Assembly: GCF_004359215.1 (NCBI RefSeq)
Contig: NC_090627.1
Coordinates: forward strand, 1,793,984 to 1,857,983
Source: Bremia lactucae
Lineage: Eukaryota > Oomycota > Peronosporomycetes > Peronosporales > Peronosporaceae
Reading direction: 5' to 3'
Length of the DNA: 64,000 nucleotides
Shown: piece by piece, positions 13,651 to 47,290 of the stretch
Position numbering within the stretch: the stretch's first letter is position 1
Layout: every line of letters begins with the position of its first letter
Program-made: the position numbers and the translations under genes
Notes under the pieces: model-generated
Databases searched by the model: none
What the model saw: only the letters and a program-made list of their open reading frames with translations
What the model was told of the DNA's origin: nothing

Positions 13651-15079
13651 ATCAAAATTGACCACGGCTAATCAAAGCCCTTAACAGTCGCTTGAGCGAC
13701 TATCAAGCCAGGCATGGAAGATCGTTACTATATAAATTGATACAGCTTGTTTTTTTCTCTATTCTAAAGACTTAGTATAGACCTTTAAGTGAAAGCCCTA
13801 AGCTTCATCGAAACCTTACCCTGTACTCTTGTATACGAGAAGTTTTGAGGCACCTTACCTACCCTGTTATCAGTGTAAGATTAACTAGAACTTATCAGTT
13901 GTAGTGAAAGGTGCCCCGTTACATCGCGGATACTTCCACTTTCTTTAAAGTTTGAGCGACTTCTTGCCTATTATAGAATTTGCCATCAACAATTCAGTGC
14001 ATGCTTCTACAAAGCAACATTGCCTTTTGTAAGTGGCTTACGCCATTCACGTATACCTACCTTGTTTGAGAGTAAGTCTTATTCAAGGGGAGAGAATTCG
14101 CTCAACTAAAGAATAATCTAGCTCTTGCTCATCAGGCATTAGCCAGAAGGTCAATGCGAAGGATATTAATGTTGATTCAATCAGCATTGAAGTCGACAAA
14201 CTCAGTTATAACAATAATGCTATTACTCTTTGATAACGATGCTGAAAGACTCAGATCGAAAAAAAATATTGACGAGAACGATAATACTCTCAATAATGAG
14301 GAGATTCATATTTTCGTAGTGCGAACCAGTCGCACTGAAAAAAAAAGAGTCAGCAGGTAATTTCATGCTGACAAGAGAAGCCAGTGATCCGTTTTTCGTA
14401 CAGAATTCCATCGCTGATGCAGTGGACCGACAGAAACGTACCTCTGACGCAACTGAAGAGCAAATATACTTTCATTTTATATTAATGATCTAGTCCTACT
14501 GTCTACGGTAAGCTACCAAAACATGTAGTAACAATGGGGCAGAAATAAAGTACTACCCAGGTATATCGGCCCGTTTCGTGTACTACATCGCCAAGGCAAT
14601 GTGTACACGATCGAGCTGCCTCGCAGTATGAATACCCACCCTACATTATATTTCGGGCGTCTCCGCCCGGGCCATCAGTACGAGGCTCCGTATTATACCG
14701 AAACGGACTTAAGCATCCGGCAAATGTCCCGAGCCAAAGCCTAATGACTCGGGTCAAAGACAGATTCATAAGAGCCAGAATACTCTTTTTAAAGAAGAGA
14801 CCGTTTGACGAGTGTCACTAGTCGTACTGGACTTTTCTGCATTCGGCAGGTGATCACGCAACATGCGAATAGTTTTTCATTTTTCGGAAAAACACTCAAC
14901 CGTCTCACTAAGTCGGACGACGGGATCGCACGTATCTCGCTCCCGTAATTAATGGATGACATTATCTAGTCACGATGTTGACTCGGTTTGCGAATGAGCG
15001 GCCCGATTTTTCGTCCCCATCACATCCATTGACGGATTCGATTGGTAGAGCGTTTTTTTAGTGAACTCTGAGCCACCGT

Positions 15080-16100
15080 GGTGTAAAAAGGGACTGAACG
15101 AGTTATCTCGTTCGATACGAGGGTATCTACCCTCGCATGATAATTGGGAACCTCGTCTTCAACTTATAATGAACGTCCCGAATCTCATAAGACGTTAGGA
15201 CGTACTCGACGGAGGGTCCATCAAAGGACGAGCGCTTGCTGCGCTCATTCTCAATACTTTGTCATCTCGCGAGAGATGAGGGTTCTCCAAGAGGGTTGTT
15301 AAGGGAGTATGCCTCGTTAAGGGTATGTATGACCTGCACCATTAAAGGGCATGAGCATGAGTCCCCCATGAGAGGTAAGGTTATCCTACCTCTCTAGACA
15401 AACGGTGCAGCTTGTAGCGTGCACCGACCACGGTCTGTTTTTCGTACCTTGCCCGGAAATCGTCCTGTTTGTCAAGCCAGGCCTCGCGGCCTATATGTTT
15501 TGCACATTCTCTACAAACATTTTCCAAGCTTGGAACAAAGGAGTATAATTCTTTACCCGCTTACATGTGTACCACCGATACCGGAAAAATGCATTGATGG
15601 TATCCCATTTCGTCCTTAAGGAGCCTGGATGAGTTGAATAGCGGAATATGGTATCGATCGTTGGTCGTACCAGACCAACTAATTGAGTTTTCTTTGGAGG
15701 ACAACCAAGGCCTCTTTTCAGGAGCGAACCGCAGCGCATTGCGGTCCCTCTCTCGTTGCTCGTGCTGACGTTAACACTACTTTTACTCTCGAGGTGATCC
15801 TAATAACACCACCGTCCCTAGTAATGCATACTGATATCACCAGAGTCATCATTGTTCATGGAGGCATCAATGGATGCCTTCGCACCCAAAAGGCTTTGTC
15901 GAAGTGTCAAGGAACTTCGTTATCACCTCCTTGGTCGTCACGTTAAAAATTGTAAGTTTAATGAACGTGGCCCCGATTGATCAAGTAGCCTGAACAGTTG
16001 CGACCGAGTCAGGCGATGACGCCGACTCATCCCAGTCACCTACAATGGGAGTTGACACTGCCACCTGCAATGAGACTAGCATATACCAGTCACCTTTAAT
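15080..16100 (-). pseudogene. antisense ORF remnant of element B
   Basis: The minus frame 15739-15491 contains YRWYTCKRVKN and FQAWKMFVENVQNI, followed after a stop by a degraded MGDSCSCP. The same order occurs antisense to pol in element G (HRSYICKRAKN, FQPWTAFVQNAQNIG, WGDSCPCC) and in element C (HRWYSGNNKR, MQAWSALF, QDIGREAWL, WGDPCPCC). Function unknown. Decayed here. Confidence 0.6.
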
Positions 16101-16377
16101 TGGAGTAGGGGGTGACTTTTTATCCACAGTAGACGCGCATGGTAGACACGTCTACTGAAACTTCTGCATTTTCAGCACCTGCACGAGTCCGTACAGCTGC
16201 CAGCTTTTCGACTTGCAAGCTACGCGCACGGGTTTCAACAGCATGCGCAAACGAATAATGCAATAAAACTGGAGTTTTAAATAAGAAAGCAATATTGAAA
16301 AAGTTACAGGGGAAGACATAATAGTGTTTCTCTGTCACTCCATATCAGTCACTATTGTGACTGTTAATTAAGGGGGA

Positions 16378-16888
16378 TGTAACGGGGTGTCCCGTTACAT
16401 AGATAGTTTTTCCTATAAGAAGAATAACTTGTATTATATTCTATAATAGAAAATTAACAAAGAATACAAAATTATTATCTTTATTAATTTTGACTTTGAC
16501 AGTTCCAACATTACTAAATATATTGTTTGACGCAATAACACATTAGTTCGATTAATTGGTTGAGCTAAGTTTTAAATCAACCCCGCCAATCGTCATAAGA
16601 CACGAATGTGCGGTGCGCAAATAGGCGCCATAAATAATTTGTTATCAATATATTTAGTCAGTAGTAGATAGAAGATCGTTACGTAGGATCTTCATAAATT
16701 AATACAGTTTTATTCTTCATTTATTCTAAAAGCCTTGTAATGTGCTTCAGTAGCTGGGACTTCTAAGCTACTTAGAACCTTTCTCTGCACGTCGTGTACG
16801 TAAAGTGGTCGAGGCGCCCCACTTTCGCTGTAATCAGTGTAGGTTGACTAGTACTTTTATCAGTACTGATAAAGAATGATCCGTTACA
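16378..16888 (+). repeat. LTR2, 3' LTR of element B
   Basis: 511 bp from TGTAACGGGGTGTCCCGTTACA to GATCCGTTACA. A purine run (AAGGGGGA) directly precedes it, as expected of a polypurine tract. The first 22 bases form a 9 bp stem with a 4-base loop. Related copies: 20253-20750 (reverse) and the split copy 38241-38580 + 47142-47290. Confidence 0.85.
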
Positions 16889-20252: not shown

Positions 20253-20750
20253 TGTAGCGGGGCACCTTCCACTAGTACTGGTAACATTACAAGTAACTTT
20301 ACATGTAGGTGAAGTGCTTCGAAATTTCATGTACATTAGAAAGCAGGGAAGGTTCATATGAAGCTAAGGGACTTTAGCCTAAAGGTCCAGACCAATGCTT
20401 TATAGCAGAGAAAAAGTGAAACTGTATTAAAATATTTAGTTTCCTACGTAACGATCTTCTATTCACTACTGAACTTATTATATCAATATCAATTAAGTTT
20501 GGCGCCTCCTTGCGCACCGCAGTCGTGTCTTGTGACGATTTGCGGAGTGGATCTAGACTTTAATCCACCAATCAATAGAGATAATGTGTAATTGCATCAA
20601 TATAACCTAATTTGGTATTATCGGAACAATTTAAGTAAAAATAAATAAATCGAATAATTATGTACAACTTTATTCATTTTCTCTTATAGGAAATGATTAT
20701 TGTTGCTCTTTTTATAGGAAATAGTACTTATGTAACGGACACCTGTTACA
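20253..20750 (-). repeat. LTR2, 5' LTR of element F
   Basis: 498 bp. On the minus strand it begins TGTAACAGGTGTCCGTTACATA at 20750 and ends AAGGTGCCCCGCTACA at 20253. It carries the TCCTATAA-type and TAATACAGTTTCACTTTTTCT segments shared with the other LTR2 copies. Confidence 0.8.
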
Positions 20751-34559: not shown

Positions 34560-36889
34560 TCGACGCGCGCCATGAACTGGCAGCATCAAGCCGTAACGAT
34601 GCCTGCCTTTCGTTCATCAGGTTGTCATCTAATGACAGGTGTCTTGTTGTTGATTTTGCTTGAGTATGGCGATAGGCACGTTATCATCAGTTTTTCGCAC
34701 CAGATGTTAGCTGGATTAGAGTTGCGCTATATGCAACAGCTGGAACTGTATTAACCACACACTATGTACCGTGGCGTCGTTGGCGGCGTGTTGAAGCGCA
34801 TACACCAAGACGAAGCGGCAAACGTGTTGATTGCATTATCTGACGGCCCGCTTCTTTCAAAACCTGCAGATGCGGTAAGAATTAGTGTCCAAATATAGCA
34901 CGGAATGCGGCAAAGTAGTTGCGTATGCGTGCCAGCAAATTGCGTCGTTTGTTGACGATGTTTTTTGGGCGGACGCTGTGATTCTTGGATTCCGAGCTAT
35001 AAATACAAACGTAATGAGCCAAAGGTATGAACCGCAGCAAATTTGATTAGACTTGTTTCGCAATTTTCTGGTTACTGATAGCCAGAATGAGTTCATCCGC
35101 AAGTACATACGGGCTTGCGAAGTTTATAACCGCTAAAGCCTAGTGCTTCATCGCGTGTTCCTTTACAACCTCTGCCTGTTCCGGCAGAGTGTTGGCAGTC
35201 CGTATCTATGGACTGCGTCTTCGAAATTTTCGAAGACAACCACAAATTAATGGTATTCTTGTTTTTCGTTGATCGTTTTAGCAAGATGGTACATCTTGCT
35301 GCCGTCTCGGAGTCGATCACAGCCAAAGGCTGTGCACGTGTCTTTGTTGACACAATAATTCGACTCCATGGGCTACCCCGTTTACTGGTCTCAGATCGAG
35401 ACCCTAGGTTCACGGCTGAATTTTGGCAAGCAGTGCTTAAATCACTTGTCACATAGTTAAAACTGTCAACTTCTGCCCATCCTGAAATAGATGGGTAAGA
35501 TGTAGCATGCTAATCGTATCATCGAAGAGATAAATCGTGGATACGTCCATTTTTTAAGAGTTGAGGCGGGTTCTTGCCGACGGTAGAATTTGCAATCAAC
35601 AATGCAGTGCATGCTTCTAGAAAGCATACACCGTTTTCGTGAATGGCTCACGCCACCCACGTATACCTACCCTACTTGAGAGTAATTCCTATTCAGAGGG
35701 GGGTAAGACTTGCTCGAGCAAAGAACTTTCAAGCTCTTGTTCATCCCGCATTAGCCCAAAGGTGAATTCGAAGGATACCAATGTGGATCAAATTAAATTT
35801 AAAGTGGACAAACTGCTATTACTGACTTTGATAACGATGCTGAAAGACTCAGCATCGAAAACAAAACAAAATGAGAACAATAACACTCTTCACAATAAGG
35901 ACATTGATATACCCCCAGTGCGAACCGGTCGCACTGAAAACAAAAATAAAATCGAGTCAGCAGGTAATTTTCTGCTGGCTAGAGAAGTATTGGTCCGTTT
36001 CGAGAAGAATTCCATCGCTGATCCGGTGGACCGACAGAAACGGAACAAGGGCAAACATACTTGCATTCACTGTAAATAATCATACTGTCCACGGTAAATC
36101 TACCAAAACACGTAGTCACGAATGTGGGCAGTAATAAATTACTGCTCAGGTATATCGGTTCGTTACGTGTACTATATCACCAATGCAATGCGTACATGAT
36201 TAAGCTGCTTCGTAGGATGCGTACGCATCCTACGATTTATGCTGGGCGTCTCTGCCCGTACTATTAATACGAGGCTTTTTTCGATTCCGGATTACACCGG
36301 AATGGTCTAGGGCATCCGCCAAAGCCTGATGGTCCCGAGCCAAAACCTTTCTGTCTTGGGATAGAGTCCGATTCCCATCAATTAGACGATCCACTCTTTA
36401 CTTCAAGGAAAAGATCTTCTGACGAGCTGTCACCAGCTCATTATAAAGGGACTGATGTGTACTTTTGTTCGCTAGTTGATCAGTCACAACTTGCGCACAA
36501 TTTCTGAACTAACCACGAGAAACATTTTCAACCGACCACCCTAGCTAGTGGCGACGGGATCGCTCGTGATCATGATCCTACCTTACTAAATAAAGGGTGT
36601 GATTTAAATCACAACAACGGGATCGCTCGTGATCCCGATCCTCATTTACTTAATAAAGAGTGTGATATAAATAACAATGTTGATCCGGGTTCGTCGAACG
36701 AGGCAAACCCGATTTTTCGTCCCCCTCCACCTTTATTGACGGATTCGGGTGGTGAGAAGCGTTTTCTTGTTATAAGCTTTTTGATCCACCGTGAGGAAAA
36801 GGGGTTCGAACGAGTTATCTCGTTAATTGGCGAAGGTATTCACACTCGCAGAATAGTTGGAAACCTCGCTCCCAACTAATGATGGACGT

Positions 36890-37800
36890 TCCGGGTCTAG
36901 TTCTGCAGTACGACGAGACCTACCCTCTTCGACAGAAGGTCAATCAAAGAACAAGCGCATCCCGCGCTCATAAAAGGATTGGAGGTTCTCAATACCTTGA
37001 CGCATCTCGTAAGAGATGAGCGTCCTCCAATGATCGTTATCAAGGGAATTGGCTTTCCAGGGGCATGACCTAAGCCCTTAAAACAGCATGGACATGAGTC
37101 ACCCCACAAGAGGCAACGTATTCCAGCCTCTTTAGACAAACGGTGCAGCTTATAGCGTGCACCGACCACGGTCCGTTTTTCGAACCGCTCACAAAAAGCG
37201 TTTACCTTGTCCAGCCAGACCTCACGGCCTATGTTTTGTGCATTCTGAACAAAGGCTGTCCATGGTTGGAACAAAAATTTAACATTTTTTGCCCGTTTAC
37301 AAATGTACGACCGATGCCGGGAAAAGGCATCGATGCAGAATTCTGTTTCATCCTCACCAGGATTGTGAAGCCTGGATGAGTCGAATTACGGGATGTGGTA
37401 TTGATCGTTGGTCATGCAAGACCAACGAATTAGGTTTCTCTTAGAGGGCAGCCCATGCCTCTTTTTAAAAGCGAATCGCAACGTATGCGGTCCCTCTCCT
37501 GTTTGATCATGTTAAGTTTAACGCTAACTTGGCCCTTAAAGCGATCCCTAGAATCCCTCCTTCCCTGGTGATGCAAACTAGCAGCACCATCAGCACTCTC
37601 CCCTTCACGATCAGTTAGTTCCTGGTGCATACACTAACGTTACCGAATGATCATCGCCCACGCAGTCATCATCAAATGACTCCCCACTAAAGAGGTCCGA
37701 CGAGTCGAACAACCTCGTCATTACCTCTTTGGTAGTCACGTTAGGATTCAAAGGCTTAACGGACTCGGCCTCGGCCCCGGGTGATCTGGCGGCCTTCAAG
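36890..37800 (-). pseudogene. antisense ORF of element G
   Basis: Minus-strand coding block opposite to pol. The 37274-36897 frame reads FVQNAQNIGREVWLDKVNAF, FEKRTVVGARYKLHRLSKEA and LLWGDSCPCC. Upstream, in a neighbouring reading, are DETEFCIDAFSRHRSYICKR and KFLFQPW. Further upstream frames 37630-37430 and 37799-37611 are acidic or charged. The same block occurs in elements C and B. The Trp-Gly-Asp-x-Cys-Pro-Cys-Cys motif could bind metal. I do not recognise the family. Confidence 0.6.
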
Positions 37801-38240
37801 TCGCCACTGAGTCGGAAGATGACGGTGACTTGGACTAGTCACTTACAATTGGTGTAGCAGGTGACTTGTCACCGTCATCTGCAATGTCATCGACACATGA
37901 CATACCCCAGTCACCTCCAATCGGAGTAGGAGGTGCCGTATTCCGCACAGTAGACGCATTCGCGTCTACCATTTCGCACAGCAGACGCATTCGCGTTTAC
38001 TAAAACATTTGCCTTACCAAAAGCTACACTGATTCGTGCAGCTCCCAGCTTAGCGGCCTCGCCGCCCACGCGTAATACTTGTTCGCCGCCATGTTAATTT
38101 TAGCCAAAATCGATAATGCAAATAAATTCGGTATTTTAATGAGAACCAATAATGCAAAATTACAGGGAAAGAAATCGTAGTATTTCCGGCCATTATGCAT
38201 CAGTCACTATAGTGACAGTTTTTTAAGAAGAAGGGGGTGA

Positions 38241-38580
38241 TGTAACGGGGTGTCCCGTTGCATAAGTAATATTCCTATAAGAGGAATAACAGTTATTATT
38301 TCCTATAGGAGGAAACCAAAAAAGAAGTGCAAAATTATTTTCCTGCTTAAATAGTTCCAACATACTAAATTTGGTAATAGTGATGCAATAAGACATTATC
38401 TCTATTGATTGGTGAATTTAAGTCTAAATCAACCCCGCCAATCGTTACAAGACACGACTGTGTGGTGCACAAGGAGGCATAATAAGTTCAGTAGTAGATA
38501 GAAGATCATCACGTAAGGAAACTAAATATATTAATACAGTTTACTTTTCTCAATTTTAAAGACTTAGTCAAGACCTTTAA
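38241..38580 (+). repeat. LTR2 left part, 3' LTR of element G
   Basis: Begins TGTAACGGGGTGTCCCGTTGCA and matches 16378 onward up to ...AAGACCTTTAA at 38580, where LTR3 of element C starts. The missing end of this LTR is at 47142-47290. Confidence 0.85.
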
Positions 38581-39019
38581 CGTTACGGGGCACTGCCGAC
38601 TTGTACTGCTTCAGTACAAGTCCACTTCGCACTGCTTCAGTGCGAGTGGTGCCTCACGTCGCTTCACGTACTCTAGTATGTGCAGAGGAAGACTCTCTTC
38701 AAAACACTTGCTTTAAAGAGGGTTAAAAGTAAACTGTATTTAATATAATAAAGTTCTTCTGTTTCTGTCTATTTAATATTAATTTGATTATAAACTAATA
38801 CAAAACATGTAATAAAGTCTTATCTGTCTCTCTCTTTGCGCGCGTCCAGCGCTGACTGGACCGCGGAGCAAGGGATATAATGGCCTATACTTACCAATGG
38901 ATAAGCTTTTTAATATTACTACGTAAGGTGATATTCTCCAGATACTATCTACCCTTTAGATAATATATTAATTAACAACCTCTAAGTGTTAATTTCATGT
39001 AGCGATAAACCCCGTTGCA
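38581..39019 (-). repeat. LTR3, 3' LTR of element C
   Basis: 439 bp. The left end is CGTTACGGGGCAC (degenerate TGTAACGGGGCAC, the reverse of the LTR end) and the right end is AACCCCGTTGCA. It contains a perfect hairpin, 10 bp arms ACTTGTACTG with loop CTT, at 38599-38621. Confidence 0.85.
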
Positions 39020-39135
39020 TCACTCCTCTCTTAAACGACAATCACTCTTACTGTCATTGAGAAGAGTGGTCACTATATGACCACTTAATTGAATTCGATG
39101 TTGATTGGTCGAACCATCATTCTTAATTCTATCGC

Positions 39136-40152
39136 ATGGTTAACAAGTCCATGCGGTATGCGAATAGTGTGATGCCTTCGGCTGCGGTTCATGCAGACGC
39201 TAGCGCATTACTGTCTCTTGCGGTAGACGTTCCGTCTGCCGAAATGTCATCTTCTGCTGCAACTCTAAATGATGCGGGTGCACATGGTGATACACCACGT
39301 GAATGCGACCCCTTTTTAAAGGTCGACTACGAATGCGAGTCGGACGAAATGGCCGACTCGGGGAGAAGAGAACAGTCGCCTGATCATCGTTAGGCGGCTG
39401 ACTGTGAGCCTTCGAATGAGGCCGCTCATCGGGAAGTCGTGCTAATAGCATTCGCTAAAGCATGTTCGATTCTGACGATGAGGATGATTCCTCGTCGCCA
39501 GCACCGTCTTCTGTGCCGTCACCTGCACATATTTTGGTGCGTGGTGATGACGATGGCGAAAGCCATCTTAATAAAAGTTCTTGTGGTAACCCTGCTTCAG
39601 TGTGTACCACTCTGGGGAGCGTAGACAATAAAATGTCTCGTCTTGCCCCTGAGAAAACCGTGGCTTTTTGCCCGAACGGCTTGTTAGTAGCTTGTCTGGA
39701 GAGACTACTACTCACAATCAATATCCTTTTTTTTATTGTGACAAAGCTACAGGGCCTTGATCCCAGCGCGAAGAAATTTCGCGCTGAGAAAGATTTTTAT
39801 CTTTATGCTTTTCTTAAGCATCGATGGTATAGTGGCAACAACAAGCGAAATTAAATCTCGCTGATGCAAGCCTGGAGCGCTTTATTTGCAATGTCAAGAC
39901 ATTGGACGCGAAGCCTGGCTACAAAGACTTAACGCGATTCGCGTTAAGTTTGAGAAACGAACTTCAACTGGTGCAAGGTATATATTGCATCGGTTGTCTC
40001 GTGAGGCAGGATGTCTCACGTGGGGTGATCCCTGTCCATGTTGTGTTGACAACACGAAACGAGTAAAAGGGGATGTCTATTTTCTTTCTTCGCCCTGGGA
40101 AAAAGCTGCATCTCTATCGAGATGCGCGATGCGATTGACGTTTTGCAATTAA
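39136..40152 (+). CDS. antisense accessory ORF of element C (frameshifted)
   Basis: Plus strand, opposite to pol. Three overlapping frames: 39136-39393 (acidic, Ser/Ala-rich), 39462-39854 (starts MFDSDDEDDSSSPAPSS and ends LKHRWYSGNNKRN) and 39886-40152 (QDIGREAWLQRLNAIRVKFE, KRTSTGARYILHRLSREAG, CLTWGDPCPCC). Conserved positions shared with elements G and B: RWY/RSY, Q-W--F, IGREAWL--LNA, FEKRT--GARY-LHRLS-EAG, WGD-CPCC. It lies between the integrase end and the 3' LTR. Antisense ORFs are known in some plant LTR elements, but I do not recognise this protein. Slightly broken; an intact relative should exist elsewhere. Confidence 0.65.
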
Positions 40153-40699
40153 TTTACAGGCGCCAGGGGCGCGTGTTTTCCGATAGACCTTCTGATCCAT
40201 CGGATGGGTCTCGTCATACTGACGGACGAGGCCCTCAACGTCAACAACCAGCTGGGAACGAGGTTCCCAGCTGTCATGCAAAGGTGGATAACCGCGCCAA
40301 CGAACCAGATAAATCGTTCGCTCCCCTTCACATCACGTTAAAATAGAATACGTTCTACAAGGAAACGTTGACCACCGTAGGAATCTACTAATGGTTGTGG
40401 TGGAGGAGGAAAATTAGATCCATGTGTCTGATCAAGAGTCAAAGATCGACAAACTCGTCCGCTACCTCCATGTATTGAAGGAGGGTCTTGAACACGAGCG
40501 CGGTAAGCGCCACTCGTTGGAACAGACGGTGCAAGCTCACTATATCGAGCGGTTGGAAAACCATGCGAAGAGTGCGTACTCAATGTTGGAGTGCGAACGG
40601 AAGTATCACGGTCTTCGTGATGCGCTGTCGTCATATCATCGCGGTTTCGAGGATCTTTGAACCCGACATCAGAATCTCCAAATTCAGCATGAGAATCTG

Positions 40700-42361
40700 G
40701 TTAGTGACCACAAGAATCTTTTAGGGATTCTTGAAAAGGGTGGTCAGATCCGTCCTCGGAACAAATCGCGTACAGATGGTACGGGCGGTGCCGACCAACG
40801 TAAAACGTAGGATGCGTTCGCATCCTACGTGGCAATTCTATTGTGTACGCATTGCCTTTGCGATGCAGTACACGGAATGGCCCAAATGAACTTGGATAGT
40901 AGCTTACTGCTACCCACATTAGTGACTACACGCTTATGTAAGTTTACCTTAGAGAGAAGTACTAGGTCATTAATTTTATATATTTTATATGAAAGAAAAT
41001 TTGCTCTTCCATGTTTGTATGCGTTACGTTTCAGACGGTCCACTGCATTAGCAATGGAATCCTGTACGAAACGAATTACTGGCTCCCGCGCCAGCAGAAA
41101 TTCCTCTGCTGACTCATTTGTTTTGTCTTTTCAGTGCACTTTGTGCGCACTGCCTTGAGATCTTTCTCATCTTCGATGTCGATACTTTGACATCGACATC
41201 ATTCGCGTTGTTAATGAAATCGATGCGTGATGAGCATGAGCCAGAAATGGTTTTGCTCGTGCGAGTCCACCCCCCCCCCTAAACAAGAGGATCCCATTAA
41301 TTGGGTGGGTATGTGTGGATGGCGTAAGCCATTCACGAAGAACGGTGTATGCGTTGTAGACGACTGCAGAAATTGTTGATGGCGACTCGACCATCGGTAT
41401 AAACTCGCTTCATTTCGGATACGGTTGAACGTGACCTTGAAGTATCTCTTCGAGAACGCGATTTACGCGTTCCGTCTGACCATCTGTCTCTGGATGATCA
41501 GAAGTTGACATATTCAGCCGTGTTCCGAGAGATCCGAACACGGATTGCCAAAACTCCGCCGTAAACCGTCGATCTCTATCCGAGACCAGTTCACGGGGTG
41601 AACCATGACGTTTGAATACCGTGTTGATAAGTGGATCTCTATTCGAGACCAGTTCACGGGGTAAACCATGATGTTTGAATACCGTGTCGATAAGTGGATC
41701 TCTATCCGAGACCAGTTCACGGGGTAATCCATGATGTTTGAATACCGTGTCGATAAGTGGATCTCTATCCGAGACCAGTTCACGGAGTAAATCGTGGCGT
41801 TTGAATACCGTGTCGATAAAGACACGGGCACAGCCTGGAGCCGTGATCGACTCTGGTATTGCAACAGAATGTACCATCTTGCCGAATCTGTCTACCAAAA
41901 CAAGGATTCCATTGTTTTTGTGATCGTCTTCGGGAAATCCGAAGACGAAGTCCATAGATACGGACTGCCAACATTCTGCCGGAATCGGTAGAGGTTGGAG
42001 AGGTGCACAGGATGAAGGGCTAGGCTTCACCCGTTGAAATATGTCGCAAGCACGAATGTACTTGCGCACGAACTGATACTGGCAGGGCCAGTTACTGTGA
42101 TATATGTTTTTTCACGTCCACGATGTCCACTTGTTGATGCATCGTGACACTCATACATGATGCACAAGCGCAAATCATTGCGAGTAGGGCGTTGCTAAAA
42201 TAATAGTCTCCAAAATTATTGGAGATAACGACACGTGGAGTGTCGCCGGCAACGGCTGTGTAGAACAGTAAGCCGTTGCGTGTTGTGTATCGATCGGATG
42301 AAGATCGATATAAAGCTGGTAAATCTTTAAAAGGTCTATGGGATGGATTCATCAGATCCAT
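40700..42361 (-). pseudogene. integrase of element C
   Basis: The zinc-finger part near 42361-42069 is degraded (ACASCMSVTMHQQVDIVDV), then CDIFQRVKPS. The core (42069-41410) reads WQSVSMDFVFGFPEDD, LVLVDRFGKMVHSVAIPES and SDHPETDGQTERVNRVLEE, with Asp, Asp and Glu of the DDE triad readable. The stretch around the second Asp is repeated four times (see 41571-41822). The C-terminal module at 41043-40700 has VLLSKVNLHKRV and, after a frameshift, FGPFRVLHRKGNAYTIELPR and MRTHPTFYVGRHRPY. Confidence 0.85.
41571..41822. repeat. 63-bp in-frame tandem repeat, four copies, inside the integrase core
   Basis: The block GATCTCTATCCGAGACCAGT recurs with exact 63-base spacing; GAGACCAG begins at 41582, 41645, 41708 and 41771. 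On the minus strand each unit encodes LIDTVFKHHGLPRELVSDRDP with small changes (RHD/HHG, SDRD/SNRD, VSDRDR in the last). The unit includes the second catalytic Asp region. Confidence 0.95.
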
Positions 42362-43389: not shown

Positions 43390-44109
43390 CTAATCCAAGG
43401 AATTTTTTAAGTCCCTTGACATCGACTGGAAATGGCCAGTCGGTAATTGCCTTGATCTTTTCGGGATCAGTACGCACGCCGTGTTCACCGACGATGCACC
43501 GAAGAAGTGGTATTTCGCTTGCAGCGAATATACACTTCTTGAGATTTTGTACATCTTATGCTCATGCATAAGTGTAAGAACCTGACGAACGTGAGTTTTA
43601 TGAACTTTCACGTCCGTCTTTCCGTCCATGGCCCGGCTATGGACAAATACATCGTCAAAATAACTCGGTGCGAATTCTCGCACCGGTCTCAACAGATTCG
43701 TTACGCATCTGTTGAATGTTGCAGGGGCGTTACTAAACCCCTGTGGCATTACTAGCCATTGCCAGAGCATCCCACTGGGAGTGCTCACTGTTGTGTACGG
43801 GATGTTCCGTTCATGCATGAGGATCTGATAAATTTCACCCATCAGATCCATCGACGAAAAGATGGTACTCTTAGACATACCATCTATGATTACGCCTTTT
43901 CTAGGTATCGACGTTTGAAACGGTACCGTTGCAGAATTTAGTTTATTGAATGCGTGCACTATCTGCCACCCTCCTGTGGACTTTCGTACACAGAAGGTCG
44001 GAGAGCTATGTGGGGAGGTTGACTTTCTCACATGGCCCGCTTTAAATCGATCGATAAAGAATTTATCGATCGCAAGTACTTGTTCACGAGGCAGTGGCCG
44101 ATGCCTCAT
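43390..44109 (-). CDS. reverse transcriptase of element C
   Basis: 239 codons open. RHRPLPREQVLAIDKFF at the start, SPHSSPTFCVRKSTGGWQIV, MLWQWLVMPQGFSNAPATF and the catalytic SYFDDVFVHSRAMDG, followed by the thumb. The YFDD motif is intact. Ends frameshifted before the connection domain. Makes cDNA from element RNA in the family. Confidence 0.88.
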   Translation of the reverse strand: MRHRPLPREQVLAIDKFFIDRFKAGHVRKSTSPHSSPTFCVRKSTGGWQIVHAFNKLNSATVPFQTSIPRKGVIIDGMSKSTIFSSMDLMGEIYQILMHERNIPYTTVSTPSGMLWQWLVMPQGFSNAPATFNRCVTNLLRPVREFAPSYFDDVFVHSRAMDGKTDVKVHKTHVRQVLTLMHEHKMYKISRSVYSLQAKYHFFGASSVNTACVLIPKRSRQLPTGHFQSMSRDLKNSLD

Positions 44110-44722
44110 GCGCAGTAAAATGAGCCCGGTTTGAGCTCGATATCATGTCGAGTGCCTTAATACTAAGGCAACTCGCATGGAATTGTTTCAGGGAATACAT
44201 CCTTGAATTCAATTGAATCCTTGTATAAAAGATTTTTCATAAGTACCTCCCAGGATTAAGTAGTATATCTCCCAATCCGAGTCTTCACATCGAGGACACT
44301 TCGTCCATCAATAAGCTGCTGAGAACCCATTCGTTCTCTGCAAAATTACCGCTGACCGAATATCGGTTATGTATCCGTCCTCTGTGACGAGTACGTAGAT
44401 CTGCCTGATTCTACCACTATGCAGATCTATCAAGAACCGCTTGAGTTCTAGGATTGGTAATTGAGTTATCATCGAAATTAACTTCGGAGGCGCGTACAGA
44501 TCAAGAGTATAAGCGCCTACTCATGATCCGTCTTCAAACAAGACATTCGATGTCTCGGTTTCTTCCTGGGATTTAACAAAAGGCTGCCGAGGATTTGATA
44601 TCTCGGGATGCTGAAGTCTAGTCACTTCTGCGTTAACTATTTGAGAATATTTTCCTTAAGTACGTAGGGACTTATTCCCTCAAAATTTTCCGACTGTGAT
44701 CGCTCTATTGCAGTCGGGTCCT

Positions 44723-45611: not shown

Positions 45612-46909
45612 TATAGATAAAACAGAAGAACTTAATTATATGAAATACAGTTTACTTTATATTCTCCTTAAAGCAAGTGATTTAAGAGAGTCTTCCTCTT
45701 CACGTACACTAGTACGTTCCTCTGCACGTACTAGTGTACGTGAAATAACTTAAGGCACCACTCGCAACTGAAGCAGTGCGAAGTGGACTTGTACTGAAGC
45801 AGTACAAGTCGTAGTGCCCCGTTACACCTGGTAGCACTTTGTAGTCCGTCCAAGGATCACATTTTTCTCATCTAGCATGGACATGTTAGATGATGGTAGG
45901 AATACGCATCACGTTTCCCGTGAAAGCTACTCCTTTCTAAGTGACATAGAAAGGAGTGCGGTCGAACGAATGAGTCCGACCGTAGGAAACGATGCAATCT
46001 TGGCAACGCTGTCCAATTTGGACAGAGATGCCCTCCATTCAGCCATTGCCAAGTTCATACAACATGAACTTAACGAGGCGAAGGGGAAGGTAGCCTTGCT
46101 AAATCAGCAAGGCTCTCAACATGCAGAATTGTTGATGTTACAACAGGTACAGACCCCTGTAGCTGGGATGATGCACAGGAGTCGTCCCGAAACCTTTAAT
46201 ATAGACATCTAAGTATACAGGAGTGGAAGAAGTTTCCTTCTTAAGATTGTTTGTTGAGTTGGACGATGCCATAAGGGCTCGTACATCGTCGACGAGTAAA
46301 TGCAAGTCGCATTTTGCTCAGTCAAATTTTGAAGGTTGTGTCAAAACTTGGGCACTACGCTTTAAGTCGCGCGACCCATATGTCTTTGAATCGCTTGAGG
46401 CTTGTAAATCCCGGCTCAAACAGACGTTTGAACCGCCTAGGGCTGAGTTCAGAGCTTGATCAGAGCTTCTAAAATTAAGCAAGGCAAGCGTGATCTTCAC
46501 GCTTATGCCCAGCACATAAGACTCTTAGCGAGTTGTATCACGAACAACCCAGTTCATGAGCCCACGTTGATTACGGTGTTCATGCAAGGTCTTGCGGAAG
46601 GTCCCGTAAAGACCCATCTATTCCGCTTGGAAGTGGATACGCTTAAGGAAGCAATATCCGTTGCGGAACAGGAGAAATTTAGCTTGAGACAGGCTCAAGC
46701 TAGTTCGTCATCGTATCGACCTCCAAGACGACACGATTTTGAAAGTCCAGATCCTATGGATCTCTCTTATGTCAATAGTGAGAAACCTCGCTTTTCGAAC
46801 AATAAGCGATTGCAGAAATGCAATCGCTGTCAAAAATTAGGACACTTCGCTCATGAGTGCAGTGCCCCACGCCCAGTACCGAAAGGTACTGAACGTAATT
46901 ATACTTAAT
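45612..46909 (+). repeat. inverted segment of element C (LTR3 second half + gag)
   Basis: 45612-45826 is the second half of LTR3 in plus orientation, ending GTAGTGCCCCGTTACA. A primer site TGGTAGCACTTTG follows at 45829, then gag on the plus strand. The remaining LTR3 half is at 46910-47141 in minus orientation. The two halves (about 215 and 232 bp) add up to about the 439 bp of the complete LTR at 38581-39019, so the segment was flipped in place. Confidence 0.8.
45877..46908 (+). pseudogene. gag of element C (on the inverted segment)
   Basis: Starts MDMLDDGRNTHHVSRESY (45877) and runs with short breaks through 46223-46459 and 46456-46908. It holds FIQHELNEAKGKVALLNQQG, VFMQGLAEGPVKTHLFRLEV and a CCHC zinc knuckle CNRCQKLGHFAHEC near the end, the nucleic-acid-binding part of nucleocapsid. 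It is cut a few residues after the knuckle, exactly where the inversion breakpoint lies; the following pol-side reading is on the other strand at about 45590. Confidence 0.85.
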
Positions 46910-47141
46910 GATGTACTAATAAAAGACATGTAATAAAGTTTTATCTGTCTCTCTCTTTGCGCGCGTTCAGCGCTGATAGGACCGCGAGCAAGTAGATATA
47001 ATGGCCTATATCTACCAATGGATAAGCTTTACCTTATTACTACCTAAAGTAATATTCCCCAAATATTATCTACCTTTTCGATAATATATTAATTAAAAAA
47101 CCTTTAAGTATTAATTTCATGTAATGATACACCCCGTTACA
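46910..47141 (-). repeat. LTR3 first half, 5' LTR of element C
   Basis: Matches 38790-39019 (ACATGTAATAAAG, GCGCGCGTTCAGCGCTGA, GGCCTATATCTACCAATGGATAAGC) and ends ACACCCCGTTACA at 47141. Confidence 0.85.
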
Positions 47142-47290
47142 TTTTAACTAAAGACAATTAGCTACACAGAAACCTTCCTCTGTACCCTTGTGTACGTGAA
47201 GTTTCGAGGCGCTAAAAAAATTCTACACTGTAATCGGTGTTAAGTTAACTAGTACTGTTATCAGTACTAGTAAAACGGTGCCCCGTTACA
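47142..47290 (+). repeat. LTR2 right part, 3' LTR of element G
   Basis: TTTTAACTAAAGAC..., then CTCTGTACCCTTGTGTACG, ending GGTGCCCCGTTACA. Matches the last part of the LTR2 copy at 13705-13923. Together with 38241-38580 it gives about 485 bp. Confidence 0.8.

What the first reader, a model, noticed from the sequence alone, without database searches (positions are those of the whole stretch)
36890..40152. Antisense accessory protein shared by three Gypsy copies (elements G, C and B)
Between integrase and 3' LTR, opposite to pol, elements G (36890-37800), C (39136-40152) and B (15080-16100) all encode the same protein block: R-W/S-Y, Q-A/P-W--F, IGREAWL--LNA, FEKRT--GARY-LHRLS-EAG, WGD-CPCC. 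The residues are conserved although G and C lie in opposite chromosomal orientations and each copy has its own frameshifts. That suggests the antisense reading was under selection before decay. Antisense ORFs are known in some plant LTR elements, but I do not recognise this protein, and its Cys motif could bind metal.
Basis: partly seen in the sequence, partly recalled or inferred. Interest (0 to 1): 0.8.

Follow-up and report, generated by a model that had tools for sequence, protein, structure and literature searches.

The report
Antisense gene in oomycete Gypsy retrotransposons
A family of jumping genes in what is probably an oomycete (water-mould) genome carries a second, real gene written backwards on the opposite DNA strand, part of which uses the same letters as the element's own main gene.

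Summary
Opposite to pol, copies G, C and B carry remains of one protein. The reading runs on across the sense chromodomain and the linker before it; in C the two readings share about 700 nt.

The antisense frame was under purifying selection in two element families. Variants shared by three or more copies pile up at its third codon position (positions 1/2/3: C core 22/19/42, C coiled coil 18/22/44, G coiled coil 25/20/42); single-copy variants are flat. The N-terminus shows no such signal. In the overlap that position is pol's second codon position, so the antisense product is the more constrained one there. Antisense frames of 360-584 codons exist in this genome, none cleanly complete. Proteins of up to 496 aa in Peronospora are homologous.

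Anatomy: acidic disordered N-terminus, helical core with C-x6-C-x-C-C, coiled coil, basic C-terminus. No Pfam or PDB relative was found.

This is a new family of a known kind, the antisense ORF between pol and 3' LTR, with an unusual dual-coding overlap. Expression and function are untested.

The parts
39136..40807 (+). Element C: antisense gene, decayed and in several frames: N-terminal part 39136-39390, acidic/SP part 39459-39854, core with CPCC 39865-40085, tail to 40346, coiled coil and basic C-terminus 40349-40807, stop 40808-40810
   Evidence: three-frame reading and tblastn pieces
36897..37385 (-). Element G: core of the antisense protein, open for 162 codons
36233..37026 (-). Element G: tail and coiled-coil C-terminus of the antisense protein (broken), ending in the basic stretch
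   Evidence: tblastn, tail_C 37026-36787 E 1.9e-11 and cc_C 36769-36233 E 6.6e-6; reading shown
37611..37838 (-). Element G: acidic N-terminal part of the antisense protein
   Evidence: open frame; match to the L067 ORF from 37799 down
15216..16028 (-). Element B: remains of a G-type antisense protein in several frames
   Evidence: tblastn pieces
40114..40332 (-). Element C: sense chromodomain and pol stop codon (40114-40116), overlapped by the antisense gene
   Evidence: Pfam PF00385 E 1.8e-9; ORF
40341..40700 (-). Element C: sense integrase-chromodomain linker, overlapped by the antisense coiled coil
   Evidence: ORF; no Pfam match
36795..37019 (+). Element G: sense chromodomain and pol stop codon
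   Evidence: Pfam PF00385 E 2.2e-7; ORF
41413..42111 (-). Element C: integrase
   Evidence: Pfam rve E 3.8e-7 (30.8 bits, cut-off 32.6), Integrase_H2C2 0.003
43393..44142 (-). Element C: reverse transcriptase
   Evidence: Pfam RVT_1 E 1.4e-15
38647..39019 (-). Element C: part of the 3' LTR, inner edge read as 39019; the antisense start codon (39136) lies 117 nt inside it
   Evidence: repeat pairs 38794-39020 with 46915-47142 (86%) and 38647-39007 with 1064-1425 (83%); edge read
39020..39032 (-). Element C: polypurine tract candidate next to the 3' LTR
   Evidence: sequence read

Best explanation
A lineage of chromodomain-bearing Ty3/Gypsy elements in a genome that is probably an oomycete's carries a further, genuine protein gene on the strand opposite to pol. 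It starts about 0.1 kb inside the 3' LTR, reads away from that LTR and ends inside the pol gene, so that about 230 codons (the chromodomain and the linker before it) are used on both strands. The protein has an acidic disordered N-terminus, a helical core with a conserved C-x6-C-x-C-C motif, a coiled coil and a basic C-terminus. Shown here: homology along the length, long open frames, purifying selection on the antisense frame of core and coiled coil, both strands kept open in the overlap. Inferred: the gene is transcribed from an antisense promoter in or near the 3' LTR; the protein oligomerises through the coiled coil, enters the nucleus through its basic tail, and regulates the element's own transcription or the fate of its pre-integration complex in trans, as HBZ does for HTLV-1 transcription and as proposed for plant antisense ORFs. 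The confidence given is for the gene being real, selected and overlapping; for the regulatory mechanism I give about 0.4.
For: Homology of G, C and B and copies genome-wide. Antisense frames of 428, 426, 360, 392, 400, 584 and 389 codons in the seven stretches fetched, which were picked for their open frames; Markov null maxima 245-301 in 200 draws each. Shared (three or more copies) against singleton variants at antisense positions 1/2/3: C core 22/19/42 against 106/112/95, C coiled coil 18/22/44 against 102/101/101, G coiled coil 25/20/42 against 97/104/92; Fisher P 0.0007, 0.002, 0.005. Stop rate in the overlap (linker and coiled coil): C antisense 0.62%, pol frame 0.47%, the other four frames 2.9-6.9%; G 1.2%, 0.8%, 2.8-7.5%. 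Permuting synonymous codons of the pol piece of L071 gives on average 9.8 antisense stops, and 0 of 2000 permutations stay open. dN/dS of the core 0.30 (C-C), 0.42 (G-G), 0.20 (C-G, 7 of 36 pairs usable). Homologues of 496 aa in Peronospora matthiolae and 493 aa from an unnamed contig, with coiled coil and basic end. Helix 393-471 of P0104 has pLDDT up to 97.
Against: All three window copies are broken, and none of the seven stretches fetched for their open frames is cleanly complete: L075 (584 codons) has a stretch of its coiled coil in a shifted frame and runs past the usual stop to the end of the fetched piece; L070 ends before the coiled coil; L071 lacks the N-terminus. The N-terminal part shows no codon-position signal (C 35/41/45, G 38/49/54), nor does the tail over the chromodomain (17/20/24). 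The G coiled-coil result is P 0.01 at three or more copies but 0.56 at two or more and 0.056 at four or more. Three antisense positions in C carry a stop in three or more copies (core 2, tail 1). Nine G-type matches with one score and the same four stops in the antisense core look like copies that were amplified all the same, so the product is not needed in cis by every copy. One sense frame over the core also has low dN/dS (0.40-0.49), though it has about five times the stop rate and is the frame whose third positions coincide with the antisense ones. There is no RNA or protein evidence, and no DNA of another species was available, so orientation and overlap are shown in this genome only. The mechanism is inferred from anatomy.
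Confidence: 0.82

Rival explanations
1. The antisense protein is real but is not a regulator: it is a structural or nucleic-acid-binding partner of the particle or of the integration complex (for example a partner of the chromodomain integrase).
For: Coiled coil, basic tail and Cys motif would suit such a role as well.
Against: The acidic disordered N-terminus and opposite-strand placement are in my view more usual for regulators (recalled; HBZ in PMC10186651, passages). Nothing tested here separates the two.
Confidence: 0.3
2. What matters is the antisense RNA (dsRNA and small RNAs, or promoter interference); the open frame is a by-product.
For: PMC7264820 (passages read) names this as a possible role of antisense transcription in LTR elements.
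Against: An RNA role does not predict variants at antisense third codon positions or protein conservation between genera.
Confidence: 0.06
3. The antisense frame is open only as a shadow of sense-strand constraint (pol overlap) or of an unrecognised sense ORF or RNA structure 3' of pol.
For: A sense frame of 93 codons lies opposite the G core; one sense frame over the core has dN/dS 0.40-0.49.
Against: Sense frames over the C core have stop rates of 2.7-7.2% against 0.55% antisense. In the overlap the fast positions are pol second positions, the opposite of what pol constraint alone gives. Synonymous permutation of the pol piece never left the antisense frame open (0 of 2000).
Confidence: 0.03
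4. A host gene captured in antisense and carried as a passenger, without a role for the element.
For: Capture is one proposed origin of additional ORFs (PMC7264820, passages). Origin was not resolved here.
Against: The rows listed by three protein searches show no gene of known function that looks like a host source (120 rows shown of 274 and of 191, so this is weak). The protein is conserved in two diverged families, and a passenger would not be expected to end inside pol.
Confidence: 0.08

Closest known systems
Antisense additional ORFs between pol and 3' LTR (aORF-3R): maize Grande gene23, rice RIRE2, Silene Retand, Phaseolus PvRetro13, Botrytis Boty (PMC7264820, PMC11963269)
   Same: Position between integrase and 3' LTR, antisense to gag-pol, in many copies, no settled function; nuclear localisation is reported for the Grande protein and an SMC domain for PvRetro13 (PMC7264820: passages and section 5 read; PMC11963269: passages).
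   Different: Protein unrelated by sequence as far as tested (no PF04195 in 39 members); relatives in downy mildews; long overlap with the pol chromodomain and linker ('overlap' 0 hits in the main text of both papers).
HBZ of HTLV-1 (and APH proteins of HTLV-2 to -4) (PMC10186651, passages)
   Same: Antisense gene transcribed from the 3' LTR side; N-terminal activation domain and C-terminal bZIP in HBZ, a layout that resembles the acidic N-terminus and C-terminal coiled coil here.
   Different: No bZIP Pfam match here; no sequence relation shown; retrotransposon with chromodomain pol; regulation untested.
ASP of HIV-1 (PMC10186651, passages)
   Same: Antisense coding in the same region as a sense gene (env).
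   Different: ASP is a hydrophobic protein of about 190 residues; this one is about 490-580 codons and partly coiled coil.
Chronos elements of oomycetes (PMC5348765, section 5 and passages read)
   Same: Ty3/Gypsy elements of Peronosporales and Pythiales with a chromodomain after integrase.
   Different: No antisense ORF is mentioned ('antisense' 0 hits in the main text). The archaeal-type RNase H that defines Chronos was not identified in the broken window copies, so membership is open.

Membership tests
Ty3/Gypsy element with chromodomain | RT, RNase H, integrase core, C-terminal chromodomain in this order | tested here: met
   C: RVT_1 1.4e-15, RT_RNaseH_2 1.9e-12, rve 3.8e-7 (just under cut-off; above it in G), Chromo 1.8e-9; gag and protease not tested
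Chronos | second, archaeal-type RNase H next to the Gypsy RNase H | tested here: inconclusive
   only RT_RNaseH families found in the six pieces scanned; copies are broken
Antisense aORF-3R of LTR retrotransposons | ORF between pol and 3' LTR, antisense to gag-pol | tested here: met
   but its 3' part also overlaps pol
Antisense aORF-3R of LTR retrotransposons | kept as coding sequence in family copies | tested here: met
   not significant for the N-terminus
Antisense aORF-3R of LTR retrotransposons | antisense transcript from its own promoter | not testable with these tools
   no RNA data
Retand aORF (TRP28, PF04195) | TRP28 domain | tested here: not met
   none of 39 members matches PF04195 at E 0.01
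HBZ-like antisense regulators | C-terminal bZIP (basic region plus leucine zipper) | tested here: inconclusive
   long helix with pLDDT up to 97 but no bZIP Pfam match; the basic stretch lies after the helix
HBZ-like antisense regulators | nuclear, represses 5' LTR transcription | not testable with these tools
   needs experiment

The most novel reading that the evidence does not exclude
Oomycete Gypsy elements independently evolved a retrovirus-like two-strand gene plan: a nuclear antisense coiled-coil regulator whose C-terminal third was overprinted on the pol linker, with the antisense frame now the constrained one and the pol linker left free to drift as long as it stays open. The gene family spans several downy mildew genera and lies unnoticed in their gene sets as over a hundred 'uncharacterized proteins'.
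Probability: 0.4. Interest if true: 0.78.

Novelty: new variant of a known kind. Interest (0 to 1): 0.64.

Why it matters
The antisense ORFs described for LTR retrotransposons in the two papers consulted (PMC7264820, PMC11963269, passages) are mostly from plants and have no settled function. Here many copies in two diverged families give an internal control: variants shared between copies follow the antisense codon frame, private decay does not. The roughly 700-nt overlap with pol is, as far as I recall, unusually long for a retrotransposon and lets one ask how two frames share constraint. It also warns that many predicted proteins of downy mildews are this retrotransposon product. It makes testable whether non-retroviral LTR elements use antisense regulators as HTLV-1 does.

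Tried and rejected
Very long open frames (up to 10258 aa) listed looked like a giant host gene that contains the block; in the one I fetched, L069, they come from a run of N (assembly gap or withheld stretch). I did not check the others.

The viral-contig scan with P0104 found no relative. Paper searches for an earlier description (listings seen) and passages of the Bremia lactucae genome paper (PMC6570648, 'antisense' 0 hits) and of the Chronos paper showed none; only open-licence papers were searched. Rows over 97% alike were dropped before counting: one search used 29 of 31 C rows and 28 of 38 G rows, 36 of 38 C rows, 27 of 37 G rows. The protein searches accept only lengths of 0.55 to 1.75 times the query (at most about 497 aa), so longer homologues would be missed.

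I considered that the organism is Bremia lactucae because of the assembly size (116 Mb; 115 Mb in PMC6570648). That it is an oomycete is inferred from the named relatives.

Full report
What was claimed and what is there. It is there. In G the frame 36897-37385 on the minus strand is open for 162 codons; in C 39865-40149 on the plus strand for 95 codons; in B pieces lie between 15216 and 16028 on the minus strand. The sense strands of G and C carry integrase and a chromodomain, in C also RT and RNase H and in G an RNase H piece, so these are chromodomain-bearing Ty3/Gypsy elements and the block is antisense to pol. Protein searches of the window's own genome (116 Mb, unnamed) returned matches for 150 of 150 scored candidates with each query; the first look had 3903 and 5409 candidates. 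The named relatives listed are all downy mildews, so the host is taken to be an oomycete (inference).

The gene is longer than reported. Reading C frame by frame and comparing pieces gives this order from the 3' LTR inwards: N-terminus 39136-39390; acidic, SP-rich part 39459-39854; core with WGDPCPCC to about 40085; tail to 40346; coiled coil 40349-40807 ending in a basic stretch and a stop. The pol stop codon of C is at 40114-40116, so the two readings share about 700 nt: the chromodomain and the linker between integrase and chromodomain. Both frames are broken in C itself. G shows the same layout: its antisense coiled coil matches at 36769-36233 and ends in a similar basic motif. The 3' LTR of C ends at 39019, followed by a polypyrimidine stretch (polypurine tract candidate of the element), and the antisense ATG is 117 nt further in.

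Open frames. Seven stretches picked for their open frames have antisense frames of 428, 426, 360, 392, 400, 584 and 389 codons; a first-order Markov null of the same stretches never exceeded 301 in 200 draws each. None of the seven is cleanly complete: the 584-codon frame of L075 contains a stretch of coiled coil in a shifted frame and runs past the usual stop to the end of the fetched piece, L070 ends before the coiled coil, and L071 lacks the N-terminus. In L071 the antisense frame (426 codons) and the pol frame (293 codons in the fetched piece) are open over the same DNA. Permuting synonymous codons of pol gave on average 9.8 antisense stops and 0 of 2000 open frames; the reverse permutation gave 4.5 sense stops and 5 of 2000 open.

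Selection. Copies are expected to decay freely after insertion, so variants private to one copy measure neutral decay, and variants shared by three or more copies mostly go back to active lineages. In the C family (36 of 38 rows after dropping near-duplicates) shared variants at antisense codon positions 1/2/3 number 22/19/42 in the core (P 0.0035) and 18/22/44 in the coiled coil (P 0.0009); singletons 106/112/95 and 102/101/101 are flat (Fisher tests). Cut-offs of two or four copies give P 0.0012 and 0.0027 for the core, 0.0023 and 0.0005 for the coiled coil. In the G family (27 of 37 rows) the coiled coil gives 25/20/42 (P 0.01) and flat singletons 97/104/92, but P 0.56 at two or more and 0.056 at four or more copies. 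The G core gave 29/27/46 (P 0.041, 28 of 38 rows; 0.08 at two or more). In the overlap, antisense position 3 is pol position 2 and antisense position 2 is pol position 3, so pol constraint alone would give the opposite pattern. The N-termini (35/41/45 and 38/49/54) and the C tail opposite the chromodomain (17/20/24) gave no significant bias.

Stops and dN/dS. In C the antisense frame has stop rates of 0.55, 0.52 and 0.62% in core, tail and overlap; three positions carry a stop in three or more copies. Over the linker and coiled coil the pol frame has 0.47% and the other four frames 2.9-6.9%. In the core the next best frame is a shifted antisense one with 1.2%; sense frames have 2.7-7.2%. In G the antisense and pol frames of the coiled coil have 1.2% and 0.8%, the others 2.8-7.5%. 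NG86 dN/dS in the antisense frame of the core is 0.30 among 15 C pairs, 0.42 among 15 G pairs and 0.20 for 7 of 36 C-G pairs that could be used; the two shifted antisense frames give 0.81-1.62. Two sense frames give 0.96-1.38 and one gives 0.40-0.49, as expected of the frame whose third positions coincide with the antisense ones; that is the weakest point of the dN/dS test.

Relatives. A search with eight natural sequences found 274 proteins; of the 120 listed 108 are uncharacterised proteins of Peronospora matthiolae and 12 come from unnamed contigs (lengths above about 497 aa could not be found). Five of those read are 481-496 aa long with the same order of parts, and one from an unnamed contig has 493 aa; some P. 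matthiolae models lack a short stretch after the core, perhaps a predicted intron. A search centred on the G type also listed Peronospora effusa and Hyaloperonospora arabidopsidis among its 120 rows of 191. No genome DNA of these species was available, so their orientation relative to pol is not shown.

Anatomy of the protein. The model of the 493-aa homologue (mean pLDDT 62) has a mostly disordered N-terminal part, a helical core (about residues 124-240, pLDDT about 70-84) and a helix 393-471 with pLDDT up to 97. Conserved cysteines in the core alignment: C132 26 of 26 rows, C139 22 of 23, C141 19 of 23, C142 21 of 23. The C-terminus keeps a stretch like RKK-RTDGT in both families and in Peronospora. 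No Pfam, PDB-sequence or fold match stood out.

How it most likely works. An antisense transcript would start in or near the 3' LTR (inferred). Its protein would oligomerise, be nuclear because of its basic tail, and act in trans on the element (inferred; like HBZ, PMC10186651 passages, and as proposed for plant antisense ORFs, PMC7264820 passages). Action in trans would also fit nine G-type matches of one score that carry the same four stops in the antisense core; those may equally show that the gene is dispensable. A structural or integration role is the main rival.

Novelty. [quoted passage not shown] This protein family, its presence in oomycetes, and the long dual-coding overlap in which the antisense frame is the more constrained one were not found in eight paper searches of an open-licence library (listings) or in the passages read of PMC5348765 and PMC6570648. 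I rate it a new variant of a known kind.

Noticed in passing
L045-L053 (nine places in G000): Nine G-type matches with one score and the same four stops in the antisense core: apparently a subfamily that amplified with a broken antisense gene, perhaps helped in trans.
   Followed up: partly
P0154, P0159, P0173: A Hyaloperonospora arabidopsidis relative of this retrotransposon protein bears the source label 'RxLR effector candidate protein'; two P. matthiolae relatives are labelled 'Protein yippee-like' and 'ASX DEUBAD domain-containing protein'. These may be annotation noise from transposon ORFs; not examined.
   Followed up: no
L069:2815-4501: The pol side of this copy is a run of N (assembly gap or withheld), which makes apparent open frames of hundreds to thousands of codons.
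   Followed up: yes
window 37700-39140: The 3' ends of elements G and C face each other, with decayed LTR stretches between the two antisense genes; parts match 15913-16136, 16255-16710, 20380-20750, 13727-13788, 45613-45825, 1064-1425 and 46915-47142.
   Followed up: partly
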